64,000 nucleotides of DNA from Blautia sp. Its GTDB lineage: Bacteria > Bacillota > Clostridia > Lachnospirales > Lachnospiraceae. The notes below the pieces were generated by a model. That model saw only the letters and a program-made list of their open reading frames with translations, was not told the DNA's origin and did not search any database. The DNA is taken from contig JAMPAC010000002.1 of assembly GCA_023667395.1 (NCBI GenBank), forward strand, positions 1 to 64,000, in the 5' to 3' direction. This document shows positions 23,841 to 38,064 of the stretch, one piece after another. Numbering within the stretch: the stretch's first letter is position 1; each line of letters begins with the position of its first letter. A program made the position numbers and the translations under genes.

Positions 23841-24013
23841 AGTCTCGGAATGGGAAGCGCAGAGCAAGGGGGCACTGGAATGCAGAGACCGGAACAAACT
23901 CCTGCAGGCAGGAGTTGAAATAGATAAAAAATAGTCTCGGAATGTAAAGCGCAGTACGGGGGCGCTGGAATGCGGAGACCGGAACAAACTCCTGCAAGCA
24001 GGAGTTGAAATAG
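23841..24013 (+). repeat. Tandem 92-base intergenic repeat between hrcA and grpE
   Basis: Two imperfect copies (23841-23923 and 23933-24013), each running from AGTCTCGGAATG through GGAATGC.GAGACCGGAAC to a hairpin ACTCCTGC/GCAGGAGT and GAAATAG. It is a longer variant of the dispersed CGGAACTGGAAT element and ends before the grpE RBS. Confidence 0.85.
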
Positions 24014-24027
24014 AAAGGAATGATAAC

Positions 24028-24681
24028 ATGACAGATCAGGAAAGAGAAGAAACGAAAGCCGCAGAATCCGCTGGGGAGGAGACCACAGCGGAAGGCGAGG
24101 CCATAGAGGAGACAGCGGCGGAGACCCCTGAAGAGGATTCCCCTGGGGAAGAAGTTCCCGGGGAGGTTTCCGAGGAAGAGCCGCCCATGAGCAGGGCGGA
24201 GAAAAAAGCCGCCAAAAAGCAGGCAAAGCACGATAAAAAAACGGACGCCTACAAAGAGCAGATCGAGCAGCTGGAAGATAAGGTAAAGCGTCAGCTGGCG
24301 GAATTTGAAAATTTCCGCAACCGCTCCGAAAAAGAAAAACATGCCATGTTTGAGACCGGAGCCAGAAGCGTGATCGAGAAGATCCTGCCAGTGGTAGATA
24401 ATTTCGAGAGAGGTCTTGCCACAGTACCGGGGGATAAGCAGGAAGATCCTTTTGTGGACGGCATGAACCGGGTTTACAAACAGCTTCTCACGGAACTGGA
24501 CAATCTCGGCGTAAAGCCCATTGAGGCAGTGGGAAAGGAATTTGACCCTAATCTCCACAACGCGGTGATGCAGACGGAGAGCGAAGAGTATGAATCCGGC
24601 ATAGTGGCGCAGGAACTCCAAAAGGGGTACACCTATCGGGACAACGTGGTTCGACACTCCATGGTTTCCGTCGTGGAGTAA
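24028..24681 (+). CDS. grpE: Nucleotide exchange factor GrpE
   Basis: 217 residues. An acidic N-terminal tail of about 55 residues is followed by the long coiled coil (EQIEQLEDKVKRQLAEFENF, RNRSEKEKHAMFETGA) and the beta-rich head (GKEFDPNLHNAVMQTESEEY, ...DNVVRHSMVSVV). It releases ADP from DnaK and acts as a thermosensor. It is in the hrcA operon, followed by dnaK after 143 bases. Confidence 0.96.
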   Translation: MTDQEREETKAAESAGEETTAEGEAIEETAAETPEEDSPGEEVPGEVSEEEPPMSRAEKKAAKKQAKHDKKTDAYKEQIEQLEDKVKRQLAEFENFRNRSEKEKHAMFETGARSVIEKILPVVDNFERGLATVPGDKQEDPFVDGMNRVYKQLLTELDNLGVKPIEAVGKEFDPNLHNAVMQTESEEYESGIVAQELQKGYTYRDNVVRHSMVSVVE

Positions 24682-24824
24682 AGGAAATTACCAGGTTCGA
24701 AAGGATTCCCCAGGCGTTTTCAGGTTTCATATGGGAGAATGCGAAGATCAGCATCCTTCTGACAAACAGCAAGGTAGTAAATATCATATAAATAAAAGAA
24801 CAAACAAATTGAGGAGGCATAAAA

Positions 24825-26705
24825 ATGAGTAAGATTATCGGTATTGACTTGGGTACAACAAACAGTTGTGTGGCAGTAATGGAAGGCGGTAAGCCTGCTG
24901 TTATCGCAAATGCAGAGGGCGCAAGAACCACACCTTCCGTAGTGGCTTTCACCAAGACCGGCGAGAGGCTGGTGGGCGAGCCCGCAAAGCGTCAGGCGGT
25001 TACCAACGCGGAGAAGACCATCTCCTCCATTAAAAGGGATATGGGTACGGACAGGGGACGTACCATTGACGAGAAGAAATATTCCCCTCAGCAGATTTCC
25101 GCTATGATCCTGCAGAAACTGAAAGCGGATGCGGAAAGCTATCTGGGTGAAAAGGTGACGGAAGCGGTTATCACCGTTCCTGCATATTTCAATGACGCGC
25201 AGCGTCAGGCAACCAAGGATGCAGGCAAGATCGCGGGTCTGGACGTAAAACGTATCATCAACGAGCCTACTGCGGCGGCGCTGGCATATGGCCTGGACAA
25301 TGAAAAAGAGCAGAAGATCATGGTATATGACCTTGGCGGCGGTACTTTCGACGTTTCCATCATTGAGATTGGCGATGGCGTGATCGAAGTTCTTGCCACC
25401 AACGGTGACACCCATCTGGGCGGCGATGATTTTGACAACAAGGTTATCCAGTGGATGCTGTCCGAGTTTAAGAAAGCGGAAGGCGTAGACCTGTCCGGCG
25501 ACAAGATGGCAATGCAGAGACTGAAAGAGGCGGCTGAGAAAGCCAAGAAAGAACTTTCCAGCGCCATGACTACCAATATCAACCTGCCTTTCATCACTGC
25601 AACGGCTGAGGGTCCCAAGCATTTTGACATGAATCTGACCCGTGCGCAGTTTGACGAACTGACAAGGGATCTGGTGGATAAGACTGCGGTTCCCGTACAG
25701 AACGCCATGAAAGATGCGGGTCTTACCAATGCGGATCTGGGTCAGGTACTGCTGGTGGGCGGTTCCACCAGGATTCCTGCGGTGCAGGATAAGGTAAGGG
25801 CGCTCACGGGCAAGGAACCCAGCAAGTCCCTGAATCCCGACGAGTGCGTGGCCATCGGCGCTTCCGTACAGGGCGGCAAGCTGGCAGGCGACGCAGGCGC
25901 AGGCGATATCCTGCTGCTGGATGTTACCCCTCTGTCCCTGTCCATTGAGACCATGGGCGGCGTGGCTACCAGACTGATCGAGAGAAACACCAGGATTCCT
26001 GCAAAGCAGAGCCAGATCTTCTCTACCGCTGCTGATAACCAGACCGCTGTGGACATCAATGTGGTGCAGGGTGAGAGACAGTTCGCGAGAGATAACAAGT
26101 CCCTTGGACAGTTCCGTCTGGATGGGATCCCTCCCGCAAGGAGAGGTATGCCTCAGATCGAAGTTACTTTTGATATTGACGCTAACGGTATTGTAAACGT
26201 ATCCGCAAAGGATCTGGGCACCGGCAAGGAGCAGCACATCACCATTACCGCAGGTTCCAATATGTCCGATGATGAGATTGAGAGGGCGGTAAAGGAAGCG
26301 GCTGAGTTCGAGGCACAGGATAAGAAGCGGAAAGAGGCCATTGAGGCCAGAAACGATGCTGACTCCTTTGTATTCCAGACGGAGAAAGCGCTGGAGGAAG
26401 TAGGCGATAAGCTGGGCGACAGCGACAAGGCTGCGGTTCAGGCGGATCTGGATGCTGTCAAGGCCATCCTGGAGAGAACCAAGGATCATGAAATGAGCGA
26501 CAGCGAGGTGGATGAACTGAAAGCGGCCAAGGAGAAACTGACCAACAGCGCGCAGGCGCTTTTCACCAAGATGTATGAAAATATGCAGGCGCAGGGAGGA
26601 GCCGGTCCCGATATGGGTGGAGCGGCGGGCCCTGATATGGGTAGCGCGTCTGCGTCCGCTTCCGCTAATGATGATGTGATCGACGGAGACTTCAGAGAAG
26701 TTTAA
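24825..26705 (+). CDS. dnaK: Chaperone DnaK (Hsp70)
   Basis: 626 residues. ATPase domain motifs [51 protein letters not shown] and [13 protein letters not shown]; interdomain linker [16 protein letters not shown]; substrate-binding domain with [20 protein letters not shown]; Gly/Ala-rich tail ending in an acidic [11 protein letters not shown]. It is shorter than E. coli DnaK in the early ATPase lobe, as in Gram-positives. RBS GAGGAGG precedes the start. Confidence 0.98.
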
Positions 26706-26725
26706 AATAAACCCGAGGTATAGGT

Positions 26726-27901
26726 ATGGCAGAGCAGAAAAGGGACTATTACGAGGTCCTTGGCGTTGATAAAAACGCAGATGACGCTACAATTAAAAAA
26801 GCATTTCGTGGATTGGCTAAGAAGTATCACCCGGATATGAATCCGGGTGATGCCGAGGCTGAGAAGAAATTTAAGGAAGCATCCGAGGCATACGCGGTAC
26901 TCAGCGATCCTGACAAGAGGAAGCAGTATGACCAATTTGGCCATGCTGCCTTTGAGGGCGGCGCGGGCGCAGGAGGATTTGACTTTAGCGGGATGGATTT
27001 TGAGGATATTTTCGGAGATCTTTTCGGCAGCTTTTTCGGAGGTGGCAGGAGCAGCAGATCGTACAGCAACGGACCCATGAAAGGGGCCAATCTGCGCACT
27101 ACCGTCCGCATTACCTTTGAGGAGGCTGTGTTCGGCTGTAATAAGGAGATCGAACTGACGGTCAAGGATACCTGCAAGACTTGTAACGGTTCCGGCGCAA
27201 GGCCGGGAACCAGTCCCGAGACCTGTAAGAGATGCGGCGGCAAGGGTCAGACGGTGGTGACGGAAACAGCCTTTTTTGGCGTTACCAGAAGCGTGAAAGT
27301 ATGTCCCGACTGTCAGGGTACCGGTAAAGTGATTCGGGAGAAATGCCCGGAGTGCTACGGCTCCGGTTACACTTCCATGAAGAAGCGCTATTCCGTGGAC
27401 ATTCCTGCGGGTATTGATAACGGTCAGTCTGTCCGTAAGCCTGGACTGGGCGATCCCGGCGCCAATGGAGGCCCTAGGGGCGATGTGCTGGTGGAGGTCA
27501 TCGTAGGCCGCCATCCCATCTTCCAGAGACGGGATATGGATCTATACTCTACCGTGCCCATGTCTTATGCGGTGGCATCCCTTGGCGGCGAGGTATTGAT
27601 CGATACTGTTGACGGCAAGGTCATCTATGACGTGAAAGCCGGTACCCAGACCGATACCAGGATCCGGTTAAAGGGCAAGGGAGTTCCTTCCTGGAGAAAC
27701 AGGGACGTCAGGGGCGACCACTATGTGACGCTGGTGGTGCAGGTGCCTGACAAACTGAGCCACGAGGCGAAAGAATTGCTGCGCCAGTTTGATGAGTTGA
27801 CAGGCGATTCCCTCCACGCCGCGAAGAACGCCACGAGCCAGGAGGACGATCCGAAAGATACCAGGGAATCCGGTGGCAGGAAGAAGAAGTTTTGGAAGTA
27901 G
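26726..27901 (+). CDS. dnaJ: Chaperone DnaJ (Hsp40)
   Basis: 391 residues. J domain with HPD at about residues 33-35 ([11 protein letters not shown]), a Gly/Phe-rich linker ([19 protein letters not shown]), four zinc-binding CxxCxGxG repeats ([32 protein letters not shown]) and the C-terminal client-binding domains. It stimulates DnaK ATPase and delivers clients. It is the last canonical gene of the heat-shock operon; a Uma2 gene follows after 20 bases. Confidence 0.98.
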
Positions 27902-27921
27902 GATAGCGGAGGACAGTTTAT

Positions 27922-28467
27922 ATGGCATTGGCTCAAGCAGTGGTCAATACAATTGAAGACATTTATGATCTTCCGGAAGGACAACGGGCAGAACTGCTGG
28001 ATGGACAAATGCATATGATGGCGCCTCCCAATACGGATCATCAGAGAATCTCGCATCTGCTGTCATGGAAGATAGAAAATTATATTCAGGGAAAAAAGGG
28101 AACCTGTCGGGTCTTTGCGGCTCCTTTCGCAGTTTTTCTGATGAAAGATGAGTTCAACTATGTGGAGCCGGATATTTCGGTGATATGCGATCAGGATAAG
28201 TTGAATGAAAAAGGCTGCAGCGGCGCACCGGATTGGGTGATAGAGATTGTTTCTCCTTCCACGAGCCGCATGGATTATGGCATAAAGCTTTTTAAATATC
28301 GTGCGGCAGGGGTGCGTGAGTACTGGATCATTAATCCGTTGAAAAAGACGGTTACGGTATATGATTTCGAGCATGAAGCAGGTACGAATCAGTATGTCTT
28401 TGATGACACGATTCCCGTGTGTATTTATAAGGATTTGAGTATTAATATGAGCGAGCTGCTTTTATAG
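27922..28467 (+). CDS. Uma2 (DUF820) family protein
   Basis: 181 residues, second Uma2 protein of the window. Motifs YVEPDISVICDQDKL, GAPDWVIEIVSPSTSRMDYG, FKYRAAGVREYWIINP and the late TVYDF strand match the PD-(D/E)XK-like fold with Asp, Glu and Lys in place. The N-terminus (YDLPEGQRAELLDGQMHMMA) is typical of the family. It is close enough to dnaJ to be co-transcribed and is followed by a strong terminator. Confidence 0.87.
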   Translation: MALAQAVVNTIEDIYDLPEGQRAELLDGQMHMMAPPNTDHQRISHLLSWKIENYIQGKKGTCRVFAAPFAVFLMKDEFNYVEPDISVICDQDKLNEKGCSGAPDWVIEIVSPSTSRMDYGIKLFKYRAAGVREYWIINPLKKTVTVYDFEHEAGTNQYVFDDTIPVCIYKDLSINMSELLL

Positions 28468-28479
28468 TGTGATATGTAG

Positions 28480-28517
28480 CGCCGCAGGATCTGTAGAGTG
28501 GATCCTGCGGCGTTTTT
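28480..28517 (+). terminator. Strong terminator closing the heat-shock transcript
   Basis: Perfect 12-bp arms CGCCGCAGGATC and GATCCTGCGGCG around a 9-base loop, then TTTTT. It marks the last GC-rich core sequence before the AT-rich island. Confidence 0.93.
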
Positions 28518-28559
28518 GTGCCCTATGGGGAAGATCATAATGTAATATGTATTTTGAAG

Positions 28560-28588
28560 TAGACAACAACAGAAATTGAAGGTATTAT
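28560..28588 (+). promoter_or_regulatory. Putative promoter of the AT-rich operon
   Basis: TAGACA (28560-28565), 17-base spacer, TATTAT (28583-28588), about 34 bases before the first start codon of the island. Confidence 0.5.
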
Positions 28589-28621
28589 GTAGTTATACTA
28601 CCAGTTTAAGGAGTGATGCCA

Positions 28622-29404
28622 ATGGGAAAGAAGGTAAATTTTTTCACAGTCGATTTATATGAATCTGTTAATAGTACACATAGAGATTATAGAGAAATCA
28701 AGGATTTGATGATAGCAATTATTAATGAAAAAGCTATTCATCTTAAGGATTTTTGGGTTCTTGATTTAACAACGGATAGTGAACTTCATTATGTGGCTGA
28801 TATTTTTTCATATAAAGAGAATAACTTATTTATGCGTGTTAGCAGTCAAAAGCCATCGGGAGGATTTTTGCATAGAGATTATAGGACAAATGTTCCAACA
28901 GGTGTCTTAGAAAGAGGCAGTGAAGATAGGGAAGGCATTGAAGTATATACATATGCGCTGTTAGACTATGAAACAGGTATCTTTTCTATTGTAAATCAAC
29001 AGAATGCTCCAAATTATAGAATTATTAATTATTTTTTTGCAAAATATAATGTAAATTATTTTATGGAATTTAAACCGATTCCCAATCCGGATGGTATCTC
29101 CAGAATATATGAAGCAGTAGATCCTCAAATTTCACAGGTAGAGGTTGAAGTCCCTGTGCCGAATGCAGAAGTTTTAGAAAGAATGTTTGGTTGGAGTGCC
29201 AAAGATATTTTAGATATACAAGGGAATGGATTAAAGGCCACAATGAAATTATCTAGAGTAGACAGAAAAGTGATTACGGATACAGCTGATGAAACGAAAG
29301 GATTAATTGATAGTATTAAATCAAGGATTACGGATTATAATAAAGCCAAAGTAAGGGCAAAAGCGTTAGGGAAAAAAATGACTGATTATAGCTTTTTCTA
29401 TTAA
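28622..29404 (+). CDS. Unknown protein paired with a ClpB-like ATPase
   Basis: 260 residues, no family recognised. It is strongly AT-rich compared with flanking genes. The first 170 residues look like a mixed alpha/beta domain (VNFFTVDLYESVNSTHRDYR, LLDYETGIFSIVNQQNAP), the rest a helical C-terminus (DETKGLIDSIKSRITDYNKA). No signal peptide or membrane helix is seen. ATG 28622 is chosen for AAGGAG 8 bases upstream. The AAA+ gene starts at or before its stop codon, so the two appear to be one functional unit, possibly an antiphage or stress module; this is inference from context. Confidence 0.7.
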   Translation: MGKKVNFFTVDLYESVNSTHRDYREIKDLMIAIINEKAIHLKDFWVLDLTTDSELHYVADIFSYKENNLFMRVSSQKPSGGFLHRDYRTNVPTGVLERGSEDREGIEVYTYALLDYETGIFSIVNQQNAPNYRIINYFFAKYNVNYFMEFKPIPNPDGISRIYEAVDPQISQVEVEVPVPNAEVLERMFGWSAKDILDIQGNGLKATMKLSRVDRKVITDTADETKGLIDSIKSRITDYNKAKVRAKALGKKMTDYSFFY

Positions 29405-30308
29405 TAGTCAATCGTAGATATACATATACGGTTAATAATTTATTTGGGTATAGAATTGATAAGATAAAGTCTCTTGAAAGTCAATTTGATGTCTCTATAC
29501 CTGAAAACACAAATATTGTAGATATTAGAGATACAAACTTTGAGCAACTAATGAAGAGTATTCGATATGAACTGGTTGGGTATAGCAGGTATAAGGATAT
29601 GTTAGAAGATGAATTAAAAAAGTTTCGAGTATTTAACAAATTAGGGCATCAACCAATATTTTCGACATTGATTATGGGTAAATCCGGTATAGGAAAAACA
29701 GAACTTGCAAGAATTTTGCATCGTAATTTATCTCCGACAGAACCATTTATAAAAATAAATTTTGGAAACTATAGTGATCAAAATGCTTTAAATAGTTTGA
29801 TAGGAAGTCCGAGAGGATATGCAGGAAGTAATAAAGGTGAATTGACAGATAAATTGTTAAAAAGTAGATCTAATGTAATTCTAATAGATGAATTTGAAAA
29901 ATCACATCAGTCAGTACAGAACTTTTTTTGCAATTATTAGAGGATGGGATGTTTTCGGATTCATTAGCAAGAGATTATGATTTGAATAAATATATAATAA
30001 TATTTACAACAAATGTCTTAAAAACACAAGCATCAAAAAAATTTTCACCTGAATTACTATCCCGGTTTAATTTGGTATATTCTTTTTCGGAATTGAGTTT
30101 GGAAGAAAAGGAAGAATATGTTAGAAAAAGATTGGAAATAATTCAGAAAGATATTAGGGACAAATTGAAAATTGATTTTGATAATGATATTATACAGAGA
30201 ATAGTCAATTTTGATTATAAAAAGTATGGGAATATGAGGGACATTAATTCTCAATTAATGAAAAGGGTAAGCGATGAATTATATCCGCTACTGTATAGAA
30301 GGGAATAA
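29392..30308 (+). pseudogene. AAA+ ATPase, ClpA/B-like, split by a frameshift
   Basis: Two overlapping frames make one AAA+ module. The first (ATG 29551 to 29940) holds Walker A GKSGIGKTELAR, pore-loop region GSPRGYAGSNKGELTD and Walker B VILIDEFEKSH. The second (29928-30308) continues with QLLEDGMFSDSLARDYD, sensor 1 IIFTTN, an arginine-finger region FSPELLSRFN and a C-domain. In ClpB the same join is seamless, so one base is gained or lost in the T7 run at about 29924-29930. The frame is also open upstream from 29392 with plausible coding but no start codon before 29551. It may be a decayed gene, a sequencing error or slippage-dependent expression. Confidence 0.75.
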
Positions 30309-30311
30309 CAG

Positions 30312-30398
30312 ATAAATATAAAAGAAAACACTTTGAGTAGGATATAGAAAGTTACATGTTCTCTCAGAGCGGATTCGAAAAAGGCGACCTGATTCTAG
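30312..30398 (+). pseudogene. Decayed 5' fragment of a second hsdR copy
   Basis: It aligns with the first 87 bases of the intact hsdR (31194 on): codons for NIKE, DIESYM, GF.KGDL are shared. The start codon is ATA, and a one-base deletion after codon 9 shifts the frame. It lies upstream of the CptIN locus, so the toxin-antitoxin genes sit between a dead and an intact hsdR start. Confidence 0.7.
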
Positions 30399-30503
30399 TG
30401 AGGTATATATCAACAGAAGAATAAAATTATGAGTATGTGGCGGGAAAGAAAAATTGGGAATAAATCATGTATGCACTGCATAAAATTTTACTGGAAAGCC
30501 CTA

Positions 30504-30532
30504 TTGACTTTCTCTTTTGTGCTTGCTAGAAT
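30504..30532 (+). promoter_or_regulatory. Sigma-A promoter of the CptI-like RNA
   Basis: TTGACT (30504-30509), 17-base spacer, TAGAAT (30527-30532). The predicted transcription start (about 30539) is a few bases before the first antitoxin repeat. Confidence 0.75.
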
Positions 30533-30544
30533 GTAGGTACAAAG

Positions 30545-30634
30545 AAAGTTTACCACTGACCGATATGTGGTATATAAATGGTCGGGTTGAAAGTTTACCG
30601 CTGACCAATATGCGGTATATAAGTGGTTGGGTTG
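30545..30634 (+). repeat. Tandem 45-base direct repeats of the antitoxin
   Basis: Both units begin AAAGTTTACC and end GGGTTG, with differences that mostly preserve base pairing. The unit count (two full) is low compared with ToxI. Confidence 0.9.
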
Positions 30635-30641
30635 AAAGTAT

Positions 30642-30671
30642 AGTCCTTCGCCGCAGGGTGAGGGACTTTTT
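30642..30671 (+). terminator. Terminator between antitoxin RNA and toxin gene
   Basis: An 11-bp stem (AGTCCTTCGCC with GGTGAGGGACT, two G-U pairs), loop GCAG, then TTTTT. In type III systems this leaky terminator sets the RNA to mRNA ratio. Confidence 0.9.
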
Positions 30672-30691
30672 ACATAGCGAGGACGGAGCAA

Positions 30692-31162
30692 ATGAAGAAA
30701 ACGGGATTTTACATTATTCAGGACAAATTTTTTGAGGATATGTCTGATCCGTATCTCAAGGGAAATAAGGCGGGGAACAGACCACATTATTATTGTTTTG
30801 AAGATACGAGTACAGGAATATGCTGGATGATACCTTTGTCCAGTCGGATTGATAAATATAAAAGAATCATAGAGAAGAAGGAAAAAGCAGGAAAACCTTG
30901 TGACATTATTCATATTGTAAAACTGGATGACAGCCGAGAAAGTGCATTTCTGATACAAGATATGTTTCCGGTAATTGAGGAATACATAGAACGGGAATAT
31001 ACTATAGCAGGAAATCATTTGATGTTGACAAGCGAGCATACAGTTAAGGAGATTGAGCAGAAAGCAAAGAAAGTTTTGGGTATGTTGAAACGTGGCATAA
31101 GGTTTACGCCAACGCAGCCGGATATTATGGTTATATTGAAAAAATTGCAGCAGAGAAAATGA
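30692..31162 (+). CDS. cptN: Type III toxin, CptN/ToxN-family endoribonuclease
   Basis: 156 residues, the size of ToxN/AbiQ/CptN toxins. The N-terminus GFYIIQDKFFEDMSDPYLKG, then NRPHYYCFEDTSTGICWMIP and LSSRIDKYKRI, matches the CptN group of Lachnospiraceae as I recall it. The conserved Ser/Lys-rich positions around SSRIDKYK are where ToxN has its active site. The toxin would cleave its own repeat RNA and, when freed, cellular mRNA; related systems abort phage infection. The gene follows the repeat-terminator unit and precedes hsdR by 31 bases. Confidence 0.85.
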   Translation: MKKTGFYIIQDKFFEDMSDPYLKGNKAGNRPHYYCFEDTSTGICWMIPLSSRIDKYKRIIEKKEKAGKPCDIIHIVKLDDSRESAFLIQDMFPVIEEYIEREYTIAGNHLMLTSEHTVKEIEQKAKKVLGMLKRGIRFTPTQPDIMVILKKLQQRK

Positions 31163-31193
31163 GTTCTCTTGTAATGGAAATGGAGAATTATAA

Positions 31194-34100
31194 ATGAACA
31201 TAAAAGAAAAACGCTTCGAACAGGACATAGAAAGCTACATGCTCTTCCAGGGAGGCTTCACAAAAGGAGACCTGAAAACATATGACAGGGAAAAAGCAAT
31301 TGATTTACCGAAGCTGATTGGTTTTGTAAAGAAAACACAGCCCAGACAATGGCAAAAATATGAAAGAAACTACGGAGCGGATGCAGAAAAGAAGTTCTAT
31401 AAGAGATTTCAGGAGAGCGTTGATACTTTTGGGCTTCTGCATGTGTTAAGACATGGCTTTGAAGACAGAGGGGCGAAGATTGAGGTTGTCGCTTTTAGGG
31501 AAAATAACAACTTAAGTCAACAGGTCATTGATGATTATAACAGTAATATTGTAACCTGCACGAGACAGTTTAAATATTCCGCCCTGAATGAAAACAGTAT
31601 CGATATGGTTCTCTCCGTAAATGGCATACCCGTTGTGGCATTGGAATTGAAAAACCAATTGACAGGCCAATCCATTTCCAATGCGAAGAAGCAGTTTATG
31701 TATGACAGAAACCCACGGGAACTGTGCTTTCAGTTTGATAAGAGATTTTTGGTCTATTTTGCGGTGGATCTGAATGAAATTGCAATGACGACCAGATTGG
31801 CGGGAAAAGAGACATCCTTTCTTCCGTTTGATCAGGGTTCTAACGGTGCGGGAAAAGTGGGCGGAGCAGGCAATCCGGGAAATCCAAATGGATATGCGAC
31901 GTCTTATTTGTGGGAACAGGTACTTACAAAAGATAATCTGCTTGAACTGGTACATAAGTTCATTCAAAGAGTGGAAGATGAAAAAGTAGTTTACAAAAAT
32001 GGAGCAGAGACGAAGAAGAAAAGTGTTAAACTACTTTTTCCGAGATATCATCAGCTGGATGTTGTCACAAAATTGATTGCGGATGTAAAAGAAAACGGTT
32101 CCGGCAGGAATTATCTGATCCAGCACAGCGCTGGATCGGGTAAGAGTAATTCGATTGCCTGGCTGGCATATGAATTGTCAGAACTTCACGATAAAAATGA
32201 TAAACCTGTTTTCACATCTGTGATCGTCATAAATGACAGGACTGTTTTGGACAGGCAGACACAAAATACTATCTTCGGGTTTGACCATGTTACGGGCACT
32301 GTAGAGAAGATAGATGATGAAAAACATTCTTCCGATCTGAAACAGGCTATTAATGATGGAAAGAAGATTATTATTACCACGTTGCAGAAATTCCCTTATA
32401 TATACGATGAAATCGATGATACCACAGACAAAAGATTCGCTGTTATTGTGGATGAAGCCCACAATTCCCAATCCGGGAGATCAGCGCAGAAACTAAAAAC
32501 AGCACTTGCGGATACGGAAGAAGCGTTAAGAGAATTTGCTGAAATAGAGGGGAAAGAGGAAGAAGAAATCAGGGATGATGAGGACAAATTGGTGGAGCAG
32601 ATGCTTACACACGGCAGGCACAAAAATCTTTCATTCTTTGCCTTTACTGCCACACCGAAAGAGTCAACGCTGGAACTGTTCGGAGAAAAACTACCTGACG
32701 GCGGCTTCAGGGCATTTCACATTTACAGTATGAAGCAGGCCATTGAGGAAGGCTTTATTCTTAATGTGCTGAAAAATTATATGACATATAAAAACTGCTA
32801 TCGTATTGCAAAAAATACCCCGGGGAATCCGGAAGTCCCTGTCACGCAGGCATTAAAGGCAATCCAGAGGTATGAATCCCTGCATCCGCATAATCTCCAG
32901 CAAAAAACGGCAATCATCATTGAAACTTTCAGGAGTGTTACAAAGAATAAAATCAACGGTAATGCAAAAGCGATGGTGGTTACCGCATCCAGATTGCACG
33001 CTATCAGATATTACCATGAATTTAAGAGATATCTGGAATTGAAAGGTTATGATGATCTTGAGATTCTGGTTGCTTTTTCCGGTATTGTAAAAGACGGGGA
33101 AGAGGAATATACAGAGGAAGGCATGAATAAACGAAAAGATGGCACTACAATCAGGGAAAGCCAATTGCCTGCGGAATTTAATAAAGATGAGTATGCCATG
33201 CTGATCGTTGCGGAAAAATATCAGACAGGATTTGACGAACCATTATTGCATACCATGTTTGTTGATAAGAAACTGAAAGGCGTGAAAGCTGTACAAACCC
33301 TGTCAAGGCTTAACAGGACTTGTGCAGGCAAGACAGATACTTTTGTCCTGGACTTTGTGAATACAGCGGAGGAGATCAAAGAAGCGTTTGAACCATATTA
33401 TGAATGTACGGAACTGGATCAGGAAATCGATGCCAACCTGATCTATGATACCAGAACCATGCTTAGGAGTTATGGATTATACAATGATGACGACATAGAA
33501 AAAATGCTGAAAATCCTCTTTAAAAAGTCTCCGCAGAATGACACTGATCTGGGGAAAATGGCAGGCGTGCTGACTCCCGTTGTGAACAGGTATAAGGAAT
33601 TGCCGAAAGACAAAAGGTTTGATTATAAGAAAGTCATCCATAATTTTAATAAATGGTACTCTTATATCACTCAGATTTCCAGAATGTTTGATATATCTCT
33701 GCAGAAAGAATATAACTTCACACAGTATCTGGAAAAGATGCTGCCTCCGGCGGTAGATGCGAAGTCGGTGGATCTGGAAGATAAATTGAAGTTGGAGTTC
33801 TATAAGCTGGAGCAGACATTTAAAGGAGATATTTCCCTGAATCCTACGGTAGAAACGTCTACATTGGAAAATCCGAAGACTTTGAGGGCTTCTGAGAAAG
33901 GGGTTCAAAAAGATGATCTGCTGGATGTTATCATCAACAGAATCAATGAAAAGTATTCAGGGGTTTTTATCGAGCGGGACAGGGTGGTGGTTGAGCAGCT
34001 TTATAACAGGTGTATCAAGTATAATGACAAGATAAGAATGCAGGCAAGGAAAAATGATGAAGAAGTATTCAATCGATCCATTTTCCCTGAGATTTTCAAA

Positions 34101-34259
34101 CAGGTTGCACAGGACTGTTATATGGAGCAGATGAAAGCATTTTCCAAATTGTTTGAAGATAAAGCCTTTTATGAATCTGTAATGGAATCTATTGCAAAGG
34201 AAGCATATAAGGGTTTGCGGAATTCCGCTTCCCAAACCACCCAAAACGCGATATACTGA
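31194..34259 (+). CDS. hsdR: Type I restriction enzyme endonuclease/translocase subunit HsdR
   Basis: 1021 residues, full length. The N-terminal PD-(D/E)XK nuclease (IDMVLSVNGIPVVALELKNQ) is followed by two RecA-like SF2 motor domains with Walker A (HSAGSGKSNS), DEAH box (VIVDEAHNSQSGRS) and motif III (FFAFTATP). Motif VI lies in VQTLSRLNRTCAGK. A helical C-terminal region would dock to HsdM. It translocates and cuts DNA only together with HsdM and HsdS, and neither gene is in this window. GC content is well below the following core gene. Confidence 0.95.
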   Translation: MNIKEKRFEQDIESYMLFQGGFTKGDLKTYDREKAIDLPKLIGFVKKTQPRQWQKYERNYGADAEKKFYKRFQESVDTFGLLHVLRHGFEDRGAKIEVVAFRENNNLSQQVIDDYNSNIVTCTRQFKYSALNENSIDMVLSVNGIPVVALELKNQLTGQSISNAKKQFMYDRNPRELCFQFDKRFLVYFAVDLNEIAMTTRLAGKETSFLPFDQGSNGAGKVGGAGNPGNPNGYATSYLWEQVLTKDNLLELVHKFIQRVEDEKVVYKNGAETKKKSVKLLFPRYHQLDVVTKLIADVKENGSGRNYLIQHSAGSGKSNSIAWLAYELSELHDKNDKPVFTSVIVINDRTVLDRQTQNTIFGFDHVTGTVEKIDDEKHSSDLKQAINDGKKIIITTLQKFPYIYDEIDDTTDKRFAVIVDEAHNSQSGRSAQKLKTALADTEEALREFAEIEGKEEEEIRDDEDKLVEQMLTHGRHKNLSFFAFTATPKESTLELFGEKLPDGGFRAFHIYSMKQAIEEGFILNVLKNYMTYKNCYRIAKNTPGNPEVPVTQALKAIQRYESLHPHNLQQKTAIIIETFRSVTKNKINGNAKAMVVTASRLHAIRYYHEFKRYLELKGYDDLEILVAFSGIVKDGEEEYTEEGMNKRKDGTTIRESQLPAEFNKDEYAMLIVAEKYQTGFDEPLLHTMFVDKKLKGVKAVQTLSRLNRTCAGKTDTFVLDFVNTAEEIKEAFEPYYECTELDQEIDANLIYDTRTMLRSYGLYNDDDIEKMLKILFKKSPQNDTDLGKMAGVLTPVVNRYKELPKDKRFDYKKVIHNFNKWYSYITQISRMFDISLQKEYNFTQYLEKMLPPAVDAKSVDLEDKLKLEFYKLEQTFKGDISLNPTVETSTLENPKTLRASEKGVQKDDLLDVIINRINEKYSGVFIERDRVVVEQLYNRCIKYNDKIRMQARKNDEEVFNRSIFPEIFKQVAQDCYMEQMKAFSKLFEDKAFYESVMESIAKEAYKGLRNSASQTTQNAIY

Positions 34260-34263
34260 TGAA

Positions 34264-35775
34264 ATGAACGATTTTATTAATACGCTTTGCAAATTATATA
34301 TCATATTCCTGACGGCGGCGCTGCCCCTTTACACGGGGGGGACCTACTGGAAGCTGGGGGATACCAAATATACGCTGTTCCGCAATGTGACGCTGATCTG
34401 CCTGGGGGCGTGGCTGGCGGTTTCTCTGCTCCGCAGCATCATTTCCCTGGCCAGCGGGACAAGGCGTTTCCCCAGGCTGAGCATCATGGATTTCTGTATG
34501 CTGGCCTACGGAGGGGCGGCGCTGGTCTCGGCGTTATGCAGTCCTTATGCCGGGACTCCCTGGACAGGCTACACGGAATGGTACATGGGCGCAGTGTCGC
34601 AGTGCATGTTTGTGGGAATTTATTTTTTTATCTCCAGATCCTGTGACGGGAGCCGTATTCCGGTTTATGTGGGGGAGGCTGGCCTAGCGGCGGTATTTCT
34701 GATCGGCTTTGCCCACCGGCTGGGATTCGATCCGATCGGGGTGATGCAGCCCTTTCATGAAAAAAGCTGGGAATACAGCCATATGATCGCCACCATAGGA
34801 AACATTAACTGGTTCTGCGGGTTCTGCAGTGTCATGGTGGGATTCCCGGTGGCATTTTTTTTAAGGAGCAAAGGGAAGCTGGAATTGTTGCTGCATTACG
34901 CAGTGAGCGTTATGGGGCTTGTGCTTTTGTGTATTCAGGGCAGCGATGCGGGTCCCCTGATTGCGGCGGTGTGTATTGGTGTCAGCCTGCTATTTGGGCT
35001 AAAGGATCAAAAGATTTTTCAGCGGGGGCTCGCCCTTGCGTCGGGAATGTGTCTGGTGATGGCGGCATATGCGAAGATTGTGAAACTGTTGGGCAAAGAG
35101 GCAATGGCCACGGTTCCCTTGGATGGCATCGGCCTGGACAGGATGGCCTGGAACGGATGGTGGGTTGTAGGGGCGGTATTCCTGATCCTGACAATAGCGA
35201 TCGGGAAATGTCCTCCAAGTGCGGCAAAGAAAGCCGGTGTGGCAATGATGTTTGCGGGCGGTCTGGCGGTGGCCGCGCTGGCGGTCGTGTATGCCCTGCG
35301 GATGCCTGGAGGGGACGACTGGGGCAGCGGCAGGGGCGGACTGTGGCGGTTTGCCTGGCAGGGCTTCGTGCAGGGCGGATTCCGGCAGAAGCTGGTGGGC
35401 GCCGGGCCGGACTGTTTTGCGGAGTATATTTATTCCACCCTGCCCGCGTCGCAGTTGACGCCCACGGAAGGGTTCTGGACAGGAACCATCTATGCCAATG
35501 CCCATAATGAGTGGCTGAATGCGCTGGTTAATCTGGGGATACTTGGCACGGCGGCGCTGGCGGGCATTTATATCGGCTGTGTGAAGCGTTACAGGAAGCT
35601 GACCCTGGGGATGCTGGTCATCGCCATGTACGGCATCAATTCCCTGATCAGCTTCCAACAGGTTTTGAGCACGCCGCTGCTTTGTATGGTGTTGGGAATG
35701 TGCGAGTATCATATGAGGAACGGTTCGCATGTCAGCCGGGGGGATTCAGACTCCATGCCTGCTTGGGAGGGTTGA
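34264..35775 (+). CDS. O-antigen ligase/Wzy-like membrane protein
   Basis: 503 residues with about 10-12 hydrophobic segments. The periplasmic-type loop with NAHNEWLNALVNLGILG near residue 420 is the O-antigen ligase (Wzy_C) signature; upstream GAGPDCFAEYIYSTLPASQL is also typical. Such proteins polymerise or transfer surface polysaccharides on undecaprenyl carriers. The ATG at 34264 lies 4 bases after the hsdR stop without a clear RBS. The jump from AT-rich to GC-rich sequence at this point suggests the island was inserted directly upstream, perhaps removing the native promoter. Confidence 0.8.
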   Translation: MNDFINTLCKLYIIFLTAALPLYTGGTYWKLGDTKYTLFRNVTLICLGAWLAVSLLRSIISLASGTRRFPRLSIMDFCMLAYGGAALVSALCSPYAGTPWTGYTEWYMGAVSQCMFVGIYFFISRSCDGSRIPVYVGEAGLAAVFLIGFAHRLGFDPIGVMQPFHEKSWEYSHMIATIGNINWFCGFCSVMVGFPVAFFLRSKGKLELLLHYAVSVMGLVLLCIQGSDAGPLIAAVCIGVSLLFGLKDQKIFQRGLALASGMCLVMAAYAKIVKLLGKEAMATVPLDGIGLDRMAWNGWWVVGAVFLILTIAIGKCPPSAAKKAGVAMMFAGGLAVAALAVVYALRMPGGDDWGSGRGGLWRFAWQGFVQGGFRQKLVGAGPDCFAEYIYSTLPASQLTPTEGFWTGTIYANAHNEWLNALVNLGILGTAALAGIYIGCVKRYRKLTLGMLVIAMYGINSLISFQQVLSTPLLCMVLGMCEYHMRNGSHVSRGDSDSMPAWEG

Positions 35776-35954
35776 GTCAACAACACTAATGCAGGTATAT
35801 GGTATGTCCGGTGAGATACGGTGCAGGACGCTGCGGTATGTGACCCTCGCAGCATTCGCAAAACGGATGCCAACGCACCCGCCTGGCGCATTGCTTGCGG
35901 GAATAATCAACAGATTGATGATGAGAAAATGGAACAGGAAAGGAACACAACAAT

Positions 35955-36941
35955 ATGAAATGGATCAGATTCCGCATTAAGACGATCACGGAGGCCGAGG
36001 ACATTATTATCAGCACCCTTTACGATATCGGTCTGGAAGGCGCGCAGATCGAGGACAAGGTACCTCTGACCGCGTTGGAAAAGGAGCAGATGTTTGTGGA
36101 CATCCTGCCTGACGGACCGGAAGACGACGGCATTGCTTACCTGAATTTTTTCGTGGAGAAAAAAGAGGACGGAACCCTCGAACTGCAGGGCGAAACGCTG
36201 GGTGTGGACGAGGCGCTGAAGAGAATCGAGGCGGAATTGGAAGACCTGAAAGTCTTCTGCGATATCGGGGACGGAACCGTGACGGTGGATGAGACGGAGG
36301 ATATTGACTGGATCAATAACTGGAAGCAGTATTTTCATCAGTTCTATATCGACGATATCCTGGTGATTCCATCCTGGGAGGATATCAAGCCCGCTGACCA
36401 GGACAAACTGATCCTCCATATCGATCCCGGCACCGCGTTTGGGACGGGGATGCATGAGACCACCCAGCTGTGCATCCGGCAGCTGCGGAAATTCATCACC
36501 CCGGAGACGGAACTTCTGGATGTGGGAACGGGTAGCGGGATCCTTGCCATCCTTTCCCTGATGTGCGGGGCAAGGCATGCAGTGGGCACAGACCTGGATC
36601 AGTGTGCCATTGAGGCCGTGGCGCAGAACTGTGAGGCAAACGGCATCGAAAGGGACAGATTTGAACTGTTGATCGGGAATATCATTACGGACAAGGCGGT
36701 GCAGGACAGGGTGGGCTATGGCCGCTATGACATTGTGGTGGCGAATATCCTTGCGGATGTGCTGGCGCCCCTGACGCCTGTGATCATCGACCAGTTAAAG
36801 CCCGGCGGGATTTATATTACTTCCGGGATCATCGACGACAAGGAACAGACGGTACGGGATGCGGTGGAGGCAGCAGGATTCGAGATTTTGGAAGTGACTT
36901 ATCAGGGCGAGTGGGTCAGCGTGACGGCGCGGAAAGTGTGA
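35955..36941 (+). CDS. prmA: Ribosomal protein L11 methyltransferase
   Basis: 328 residues. The N-terminal substrate-recognition domain (MKWIRFRIKTITEAEDIIIS) is followed by a class I SAM-dependent fold with motif I LLDVGTGSGILAILSL, DPGTAFGTGMHETT before it, and motif IV VVANILADVLAPL. It trimethylates L11 at several lysines and the N-terminus. It is commonly followed by rsmE in Firmicutes, as here. RBS GGAAAGGA lies about 11 bases upstream. Confidence 0.96.
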   Translation: MKWIRFRIKTITEAEDIIISTLYDIGLEGAQIEDKVPLTALEKEQMFVDILPDGPEDDGIAYLNFFVEKKEDGTLELQGETLGVDEALKRIEAELEDLKVFCDIGDGTVTVDETEDIDWINNWKQYFHQFYIDDILVIPSWEDIKPADQDKLILHIDPGTAFGTGMHETTQLCIRQLRKFITPETELLDVGTGSGILAILSLMCGARHAVGTDLDQCAIEAVAQNCEANGIERDRFELLIGNIITDKAVQDRVGYGRYDIVVANILADVLAPLTPVIIDQLKPGGIYITSGIIDDKEQTVRDAVEAAGFEILEVTYQGEWVSVTARKV

Positions 36942-37078
36942 GAAGAATTTCTAAGGCGTCTGAAGGACGCCGCCTAAGAAATTCTACGGCTCGCAAAGCG
37001 AGCCTTTCTCACACGGCAGAATCGCTGAAACGATTCTGCCTGGGTTCTCACGTATTGTTCGTGCCGCCGCAGGCGGCA
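36938..37078. repeat. Cluster of four hairpins (composite palindrome)
   Basis: AGAATTTCTAAGGCG/CGCCTAAGAAATTCT (36944-36985), GGCTCGC/GCGAGCC (36988-37004), GGCAGAATCG/CGATTCTGCC (37015-37040) and TGCCGCC/GGCGGCA (37062-37078). An outer GTGAGAA/TTCTCAC pair frames the first two. The same plan recurs at 45655. Some arms may also terminate prmA transcription, but there is no T-run. Confidence 0.75.
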
Positions 37079-37110
37079 TGACGGGAAGTGTGAAGTATAT
37101 CATTTTACTA

Positions 37111-37232
37111 TACTGAAAGATTTGTGCGAAATCAGAAAAATATTTCAGCATATTGAAAGATTTGCCCAAAGTCAAAAAATCTTTCACCATACTGAAAGAT
37201 TTGCTTGACATTCGACAAAACTTTCAGTATTA
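37111..37232 (+). repeat. Three tandem dyads upstream of rsmE
   Basis: TA(C/T)TGAAAGATTTG at 37111, 37151 and 37190, each followed after about 15 bases by the inverse arm (AAATATTTCA, AAATCTTTCA, AAAACTTTCAGTA). Period is 39-40 bases. The third dyad overlaps the rsmE promoter, as an operator array would. Confidence 0.7.
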
Positions 37233-37233
37233 G
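37205..37233 (+). promoter_or_regulatory. Putative rsmE promoter
   Basis: TTGACA (37205-37210), 17-base spacer, TATTAG (37228-37233), inside the third dyad. Confidence 0.6.
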
Positions 37234-37314
37234 GTGTATGATAATGCCGGAAATTGATTTTCTGCTGATGAACAGTCTTCAGGAGCAGTAAATATTATGC
37301 AGAAAGGATCCTTT

Positions 37315-38064
37315 ATGTATCAGTTTTTTGTAGACCCATCCCAGATCAACATACATGACAAATGTGTCATAATACAGGGAAGCGATGTGAACCATATCCG
37401 CAATGTGCTCCGCATGAAGCCCGGCGAGGAACTGAATGTGAGCAACGGCCAGGACGGAAAGGAGTACCGCTGTGCCGTTGAAACATTCGGGGAGGACAGG
37501 GTGGTCTGTCAGCTTCGCTTCGTGAAAGAGGACAATGTGGAACTGCCCTCCAGGGTATATCTGTTCCAGGCGCTCCCCAAAGCGGACAAGATGGAACTGA
37601 TCATCCAGAAAGCCGTGGAACTGGGTGTGTACCGCATCATTCCCGTGGCGGCGAAGCGGTGCGTGGTAAAGCTGGACGAGAAGAAAGCGGCGGCAAGGAT
37701 CACCAGATGGCAGACCATTGCCCAGGCCGCCGCCAAGCAGAGCAAGAGAGGGATCCTGCCGGAGGTGGCGGAAGTCATGGACTTTGCCCGGGCTGTAAAG
37801 CTGGCGGCGGATATGGATGTAAAACTGATCCCCTATGAACTGGCGGAGGGCATGGAGCAGACGAGGGAACGGATCGATGCGCTCCAGGCAGGACAGGATA
37901 TCGCCCTTTTTATCGGCCCCGAGGGAGGATTTGAGGAGGCGGAGATCCGGTTGGCGGCGGACAACGGAATTGTTCCCATCACCCTGGGGAAACGCATCCT
38001 GAGAACAGAGACGGCCGGCATGACGGTACTTTCCTGGATCATGTACCGCCTGGAGGGCAAATAG
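37315..38064 (+). CDS. rsmE: 16S rRNA m3U1498 methyltransferase
   Basis: 249 residues. The N-terminal PUA-like domain (YQFFVDPSQI, GSDVNHIRNVLRMKPGEELN) precedes a SPOUT methyltransferase domain with the knot motifs LFIGPEGGFEEAEIRLA and TLGKRILRTETAGMTVLSWI. It methylates N3 of U1498 in the decoding site. ATG 37315 has AAAGGA 7 bases upstream and gives the usual MYxFFV start; 37297 is an alternative in frame. Confidence 0.95.
   Translation: MYQFFVDPSQINIHDKCVIIQGSDVNHIRNVLRMKPGEELNVSNGQDGKEYRCAVETFGEDRVVCQLRFVKEDNVELPSRVYLFQALPKADKMELIIQKAVELGVYRIIPVAAKRCVVKLDEKKAAARITRWQTIAQAAAKQSKRGILPEVAEVMDFARAVKLAADMDVKLIPYELAEGMEQTRERIDALQAGQDIALFIGPEGGFEEAEIRLAADNGIVPITLGKRILRTETAGMTVLSWIMYRLEGK

What the first reader, a model, noticed from the sequence alone, without database searches (positions are those of the whole stretch)
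30504..31162. Type III toxin-antitoxin (CptIN-like) locus with covarying pseudoknot repeats
Promoter, two 45-nt tandem repeats, an 11-bp terminator and a 156-residue ToxN/CptN-like gene are arranged exactly as in type III systems. Between the repeats, CCAC/GTGG becomes CCGC/GCGG, a compensatory change, and the second stem also stays pairable. With only two repeats the RNA supply is low, so terminator leakage must be finely set.
Basis: partly seen in the sequence, partly recalled or inferred. Interest (0 to 1): 0.75.

Follow-up and report, generated by a model that had tools for sequence, protein, structure and literature searches.

The report
CptIN RNA–toxin pair in gut bacterium
This stretch is a known kind of bacterial toxin-antitoxin module (CptIN), in which a small RNA made of two tandem knots silences an RNA-cutting protein; the one less ordinary detail is that its two knots differ, in an order shared by most of the close relatives examined.

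Summary
[quoted passage not shown] The toxin matches solved CptN of Eubacterium rectale (117 of 152 aligned residues identical; 17 of 17 inspected positions identical) and the NCBIfam CptIN model (183 bits, cut-off 90). The first processed repeat (30546-30590) is letter for letter the 45-nt antitoxin shown in print to neutralise that toxin. Both pseudoknot stems covary across relatives.

Two corrections. The compensatory change between the repeats is not local: 58 of 63 distinct two-repeat relatives (window included) carry the same A-U-then-G-C order, 5 are homogeneous, none reversed. Two repeats is the usual number (63 of 69), so 'low RNA supply, finely set leakage' has no support.

Less ordinary: the two repeats keep separate, position-fixed sequences although synonymous sites of the toxin are heavily diverged, and other CptI subfamilies also hold unlike tandem units, though several are homogeneous. 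Whether the non-identity matters is open. The module sits beside an orphan HsdR-like gene in a dnaJ-prmA gap of variable length.

The parts
30504..30532 (+). sigma-A-type promoter, TTGACT-17-TAGAAT, TG before the -10
   Evidence: similar sites before unit 1 in 69 of 69 near relatives with enough flank
30546..30590 (+). CptI unit 1 (type A), 45-nt H-type pseudoknot; stems ACCAC/GUGGU and CCGA/UCGG; cuts by CptN after GA at both ends are inferred from the homologue
   Evidence: identical to the E. rectale CptI single repeat (primer CptI-WT of PMC4627078); covariation
30591..30635 (+). CptI unit 2 (type B), 5 differences from unit 1; stems ACCGC/GCGGU and CCAA/UUGG
30642..30671 (+). intrinsic terminator between antitoxin and toxin gene (11-bp stem, T tail)
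30680..30688 (+). ribosome-binding site (AGGACGGAG)
   Evidence: read from the sequence
30692..31162 (+). cptN, 156-aa endoribonuclease toxin
   Evidence: NF047359 183 bits, PDB 4rmo E 1.5e-78, 17 of 17 inspected residues identical

Best explanation
A CptIN type III toxin-antitoxin module. One promoter makes an RNA of two 45-nt pseudoknots; most transcripts stop at the terminator (antitoxin only), a minority read through into cptN. CptN cuts the RNA at GA/AAG boundaries and is held inactive in a 2:2 ring with the products. If transcription stops or the RNA is lost, CptN is freed and cuts cellular RNA, arresting growth; this favours retention of the module and possibly defence. Shown here by sequence: family membership, architecture, the two pseudoknots by covariation, identity of unit 1 to a tested antitoxin. 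Shown in print for the E. rectale homologue (PMC4627078): toxicity, neutralisation, RNA ending at A45 with a cyclic phosphate, the 2:2 complex, plasmid stabilisation. Inferred: activity of this copy, start site, read-through ratio, trigger.
For: NCBIfam CptIN equivalog 183 bits against cut-off 90; 4rmo_A E 1.5e-78; 117 of 152 residues identical, with S51 S52 R53, D81, S85, Y104, I106 and the hydrophobic-pocket residues named in the paper identical; unit 1 identical 45 of 45 to the tested repeat; loop-2 positions named in the paper (A27, A29, U30, A31, A33, G35) kept in unit 1. Both stems covary in 61 distinct units of alignment A3: 85.9% of cells paired against 75.0% shuffled and at most 37.2% when slid, 67 cells changed on both sides against 21.6 shuffled. 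45 of 295 related genomes hold a match over the family cut-off, 0 of 14 control genomes.
Against: No expression or toxicity data for this copy. No Rfam family matched it at the gathering score; only three matches far below gathering, E 2.4 or worse, in 30400-30800. Pfam and PADLOC give no family for the toxin. One of the five covariation measures, number of further pair types, does not exceed shuffles (18 against 17.2, 189 of 500). Unit 2 has G at position 33 of loop 2, where the paper names A33 contacts, so its antitoxicity is not assured. The primer has U at position 6 where the paper's text speaks of C6; not resolved.
Confidence: 0.96

Rival explanations
1. The module is present but silent or decayed here (a relic), with repeats and gene only apparently intact.
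For: Neighbours are decayed: an hsdR 5' remnant at 30303-30392 and an AAA gene split over two frames. cptN copies with stop codons inside occur among the relatives.
Against: Open frame of 156 aa, all 17 inspected residues kept, promoter, terminator and ribosome site intact, repeat 1 equal to that of E. rectale.
Confidence: 0.04
2. It belongs to the ToxIN or TenpIN family rather than CptIN.
For: The TenpIN model gives a weak match (16 bits, E 0.011).
Against: TenpIN cut-off is 90 bits and CptIN scores 183; the solved CptN homologue and the 45-nt unit fit CptIN.
Confidence: 0.01
3. The A/B difference between the two repeats (a sub-question, not a rival to CptIN) is inherited by descent with no function of its own: the repeats diverged once under pairing constraint and are interchangeable.
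For: On the midpoint-rooted toxin tree all 57 A/B rows lie in one 65-row part (support 87/80, not starred) and three homogeneous rows outside it; the labels are clustered (9 changes in all, 11.7 in shuffles, as low in 0 of 200). Homogeneous or nearly homogeneous arrays exist in other subfamilies (L011, L012, L186, L028, L197, L181). Cross-pairing between near-clade repeats is only slightly worse than native (7.08 and 7.30 of 8 against 7.98 and 8.00). A single A repeat suffices in E. rectale (PMC4627078).
Against: For 467 locus pairs whose four-fold sites differ by 50-80%, repeat 1 differs between loci by 1.15 nt on average but repeat 1 from repeat 2 by 4.49; no reversed order among 63; single arrays need 6 changes for 6 rows and homogeneous ones 4 for 6, so loss recurs without founding a larger clade; other subfamilies hold unlike units too.
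Confidence: 0.7

Closest known systems
CptIN of Eubacterium rectale (PDB 4RMO; PMC4627078)
   Same: Toxin 117 of 152 aligned residues identical, all 17 inspected residues identical; repeat 1 identical over 45 nt; two repeats
   Different: Host and neighbourhood. Whether the E. rectale locus also carries a B-type second repeat was not seen: the parts of the paper I read give one repeat sequence, and I did not fetch that locus by name
ToxIN (Pectobacterium, Bacillus; AbiQ of Lactococcus)
   Same: Operon layout: repeats, terminator, endoribonuclease gene; toxin cuts its own antitoxin into pseudoknots
   Different: Units 34-36 nt repeated 2.8-5.5 times; ToxIN complexes hexameric (review PMC5086642: passages, section 3); no ToxN family among matches here
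TenpIN
   Same: Type III layout (review PMC5086642, passages)
   Different: 16 bits against a 90-bit cut-off

Membership tests
CptIN (type III toxin-antitoxin) | Toxin of the CptN sequence family | tested here: met
   NF047359 183 bits, cut-off 90; 4rmo_A E 1.5e-78
CptIN (type III toxin-antitoxin) | Ser-Ser-Arg triad, D81/S85/Y104 adenine site and named pocket residues | tested here: met
   17 of 17 positions inspected identical; residue names from PMC4627078; the triad's numbers 51-53 are my reading of the chain, and positions 29, 30, 33 my own choice
CptIN (type III toxin-antitoxin) | Upstream tandem repeats of about 45 nt folding as H-type pseudoknots | tested here: met
CptIN (type III toxin-antitoxin) | One promoter; terminator between repeats and toxin gene | tested here: met
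   as pattern matches only; not shown experimentally
CptIN (type III toxin-antitoxin) | Toxin is toxic and neutralised by the cognate RNA; RNA cut to monomers | not testable with these tools
   shown in print for the E. rectale homologue only (PMC4627078)
CptIN (type III toxin-antitoxin) | 2:2 heterotetramer | not testable with these tools
   no structure prediction was run
ToxIN | Match to a ToxN family model | tested here: not met
   no Pfam family and only CptIN and TenpIN in NCBIfam at E up to 1 (filters drop most matches above about 0.1)
TenpIN | NCBIfam TenpIN model over cut-off | tested here: not met
   16 bits, cut-off 90

The most novel reading that the evidence does not exclude
CptI arrays are under selection to keep two non-identical pseudoknots in fixed order: the two units are not interchangeable, either because unlike repeats resist slippage and recombination that would delete one, or because they differ in affinity or role (for example a tight A unit and a weaker, regulatory B unit, often with G33 in loop 2). 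In twelve loci of the group L158-L200 the two units appear to have wholly different stems but the same fold.
Probability: 0.27. Interest if true: 0.5.

Novelty: new member of a known kind. Interest (0 to 1): 0.3.

Why it matters
As a locus it is one more, well-formed CptIN. Its use is that repeat 1 equals a repeat with a solved structure while repeat 2 is a natural five-point variant, compensated in both stems and long kept beside it: a ready-made test of whether tandem antitoxin repeats are interchangeable, which bears on how type III arrays avoid losing repeats and how toxin and RNA stay matched.

Tried and rejected
HsdR as a partner gene: of 109 other CptN-bearing loci (own-genome copies left out, duplicates among the rest) only L084 has an HsdR-like match within its fetched flank, at 26% identity. 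Rejected as a conserved pair; many loci have short flanks, so this is a weak negative.

Phage carriage: no relative in the viral contigs or the phage records; six plasmid records carry distant CptN relatives, 31-48% identical. PHROG phrog_33519 matches the toxin (5e-35), so phage-linked members have been recorded.

Avoidance of mispairing between repeats as the reason for A/B: in the near clade cross-pairing is 7.08 and 7.30 of 8 core pairs against 7.98 and 8.00 native; not supported there. In the 46-nt subfamily it is 6.07 and 7.36 against 7.29 and 7.07.

The script matched one unit per locus and gave no numbers; replaced. In the 46-nt subfamily 3 of 14 loci show a compensated pair and 11 have two or more pairs broken in one repeat under my column frame, so there the difference is not mainly compensatory.

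Rows dropped: of 205 loci held at the time, 172 were given to the RNA model and 142 of these had matches; with the window, 143, of which 10 had no toxin start by my rule and left the de-replicated counts (of these L109, L110, L151, L155 are A-then-B, L083 and L100 have one unit, L003, L158, L159, L193 are not near-clade). L007 and L179 visibly have repeats but were missed by the model. Four-fold comparisons used 783 of 1953 locus pairs; the rest failed my filters. Covariation was counted on A3 only, not on A2 or A4. The sets (58 of 63; 57 A/B, 6 homogeneous) differ: L149, not in the first set, is in the second, and L073 left for its short flank (inferred from the filters).

Literature: the listings showed me no paper on position-fixed unlike repeats in type III antitoxins; the founding family paper (doi 10.1093/nar/gks231, recalled) is not held, so this is no claim that it is unpublished.

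Full report
What is there. The region holds a promoter (30504-30532), two 45-nt repeats (30544-30588, 30589-30633), a terminator (stem-loop 30642-30667 and T tail) and a 156-aa gene (30692-31162). Promoter-like sites with 9-11 of 12 matches lie in the 60 nt before unit 1 in 69 of 69 near relatives with enough flank, and 61 of 69 have TTTT between the last unit and the toxin start found by my rule (no shuffle control).

Identity. The protein scores 183 bits on NCBIfam NF047359 'CptIN family toxin' (cut-off 90) and 16 bits on TenpIN (cut-off 90). Its best solved relative is 4rmo_A, CptN toxin, E 1.5e-78. Aligned to that chain, 117 of 152 residues are identical, and all 17 positions I inspected are the same: the Ser-Ser-Arg triad, D81, S85, Y104, I106, the pocket residues named in PMC4627078, and three of my own choice. 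Pfam and PADLOC gave no family for it. PMC4627078 (abstract, methods, results and discussion sections read) gives the primer that encodes a single E. rectale repeat; its reverse complement occurs in the window once, at 30546, without mismatch. That fixes the frame: the mature unit runs AAG...UUGA, with cuts after GA at 30545, 30590 and 30635, inferred from the homologue.

Pseudoknot. In the published numbering I take stem 1 as 7-11 with 22-26 and stem 2 as 15-18 with 37-40, which fits the loops named in the paper (L1 G13, L2 A27-G35). Unit 1 to unit 2 changes five positions: 10 and 23 (A-U to G-C), 17 and 38 (G-C to A-U), and 33 (A to G). Random placement of five transitions yields two compensated pairs with none broken in about 0.09% of trials. 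On alignment A3 (84 units, 61 distinct), fitted to a model that contained stem 1 only, both stems covary: 85.9% of cells paired, 75.0% when shuffled, at most 37.2% when slid; 67 cells changed on both sides against 21.6; covariation score 0.344 against 0.185; all five stem-2 pairs and four of five stem-1 pairs have a change on both sides; the number of pair types (18 against 17.2) does not exceed shuffles. The outer pairs 10-29 and 17-45 of that alignment are unpaired in 30 and 42 units, so the common core is four pairs each. The sequences are related, which the shuffles do not allow for.

The change between repeats is old. Among 82 near-clade two-repeat loci with both units readable (duplicates included) 76 have A-U in unit 1 and G-C in unit 2 at pair 10-23, six are homogeneous, none reversed. 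De-replicated on toxin sequence: 58 of 63, four G-C/G-C, one A-U/A-U, none reversed; clustering toxins at 90% identity leaves 23 of 28. At pair 17-38 unit 1 is G-C in 58 of 63; unit 2 is A-U in 45, G-U in 15 and G-C in 3. Unit 2 has G33 in 27 of 63, unit 1 in 4 of 63. For the 467 locus pairs whose four-fold sites differ by 50-80%, unit 1 differs by 1.15 nt, unit 2 by 1.92, unit 1 against unit 2 by 4.49 (783 of 1953 pairs passed my filters). Of 1134 pair cells in these units one is unpaired.

How far beyond the near clade. In a second subfamily (46-nt units, 14 loci) unit 1 and unit 2 differ by 9-13 nt in 13 loci and not at all in one; 26 of 28 units are nearest to a foreign unit in the same position, one ties, one is not. 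There the changes are mostly not compensatory in my frame (3 of 14 with a compensated pair). Among 15 other loci 7 have at least one compensated pair and 8 none; L011, L012, L186, L197 and L181 are homogeneous or nearly so. In a third group (12 of 13 loci long enough, L158 to L200) the upstream unit has stems unrelated to those of the downstream unit but can form the same kind of pseudoknot; mononucleotide shuffles reached its score in 0 of 60 (10 loci) or 1 of 60 (2 loci).

Tree. On 69 near-clade toxins (57 A/B, 6 homogeneous, 6 single) single arrays need 6 changes for 6 rows and homogeneous ones 4 for 6; the labels together need 9 changes against 11.7 in shuffles, as low in 0 of 200, so they are clustered. 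With midpoint rooting three homogeneous rows on long branches (L149, L108, L143) fall outside the 65-row part that holds all A/B rows (support 87/80, not starred). A/B may thus have arisen within this clade, with repeat loss or homogenisation recurring at tips. That fits selection for two unlike repeats but also recent neutral loss; I cannot separate them. Simple avoidance of mispairing is not supported in the near clade.

Repeat number. 63 of 69 near loci with enough upstream sequence have two units, 6 have one, none three; 7 of 76 were skipped for short or masked flank. Two is the norm; a single repeat neutralised the toxin in E. rectale tests (PMC4627078). The claim of finely set leakage has no support beyond the general type III layout.

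Setting. The module lies in an 8.1-kb stretch between dnaJ (coding to 27898) and prmA (from 35955); dnaK, dnaJ and prmA score over their NCBIfam cut-offs, rsmE over one subfamily cut-off, and the ORF at 34192 matches nothing at E 1e-20. Of 61 genomes of the genus searched for each gene, 45 (own included) have both whole on one contig: the gap runs from 92 bp to 13.6 kb, median 2.6 kb (coordinates copied by hand). The nearest relative by DnaJ score, G038, has 1.7 kb there and is not in the list of CptIN-positive genomes (its handle suggests it was among the 295 searched). Next to cptN is a 1021-aa HsdR-like gene (TIGR00348 182 bits, cut-off 284.55; HSDR_N and helicase domains); I saw no hsdM or hsdS beside it in the ORFs of 24000-38000, though not all of these were searched against families. 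Its 5' end has a decayed partial copy upstream of the CptIN promoter, 30303-30392 against 31185-31275. The AAA gene before it matches PADLOC PDC-M37B but is split over two frames. So CptIN is one cargo of what looks like a defence island; its HsdR-like neighbour is not shared with its relatives. A defence role is inferred from neighbours only; the E. rectale homologue did not block over 200 coliphages but did stabilise a plasmid (PMC4627078).

Verdict. A clear, ordinary new member of CptIN, with a noteworthy inherited asymmetry between its two antitoxin units that deserves a simple swap experiment.

Noticed in passing
window 30303-30392 and 31185-31275: A decayed copy of the start of the hsdR-like gene (leader plus about 80 coding bp) lies just upstream of the CptIN promoter, so the module is flanked by direct copies of the hsdR start; suggests insertion or recombination there.
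   Followed up: partly
window 29551-30308: AAA gene (ClpA-like, PADLOC PDC-M37B) is split between two overlapping frames near a run of T; either a pseudogene or an assembly error.
   Followed up: no
window 27898-35955: Variable gap between dnaJ and prmA (92 bp to 13.6 kb in 45 genomes of the genus), here with Uma2, the AAA gene, CptIN and an orphan HsdR-like gene.
   Followed up: partly
L179 (G000:C164:1360-2310), minus strand: A second type III-like locus in the same genome: toxin with 56.5 bits on the CptIN model (below the 90 cut-off), preceded by three repeats spaced 45 nt with GCAATGT/ACATTGC arms, the middle copy 71% identical; not found by my CptI model.
   Followed up: partly
L158, L159, L164, L165, L183, L187, L188, L192, L193, L194, L198, L200: CptIN-type loci whose two tandem pseudoknots appear to have entirely different stems; my RNA model matched only one unit in each.
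   Followed up: partly
window 30400-30800: No Rfam 15 family recognises the CptI antitoxin at its gathering score, although the structure is solved and the repeat recurs in many Lachnospiraceae contigs.
   Followed up: no
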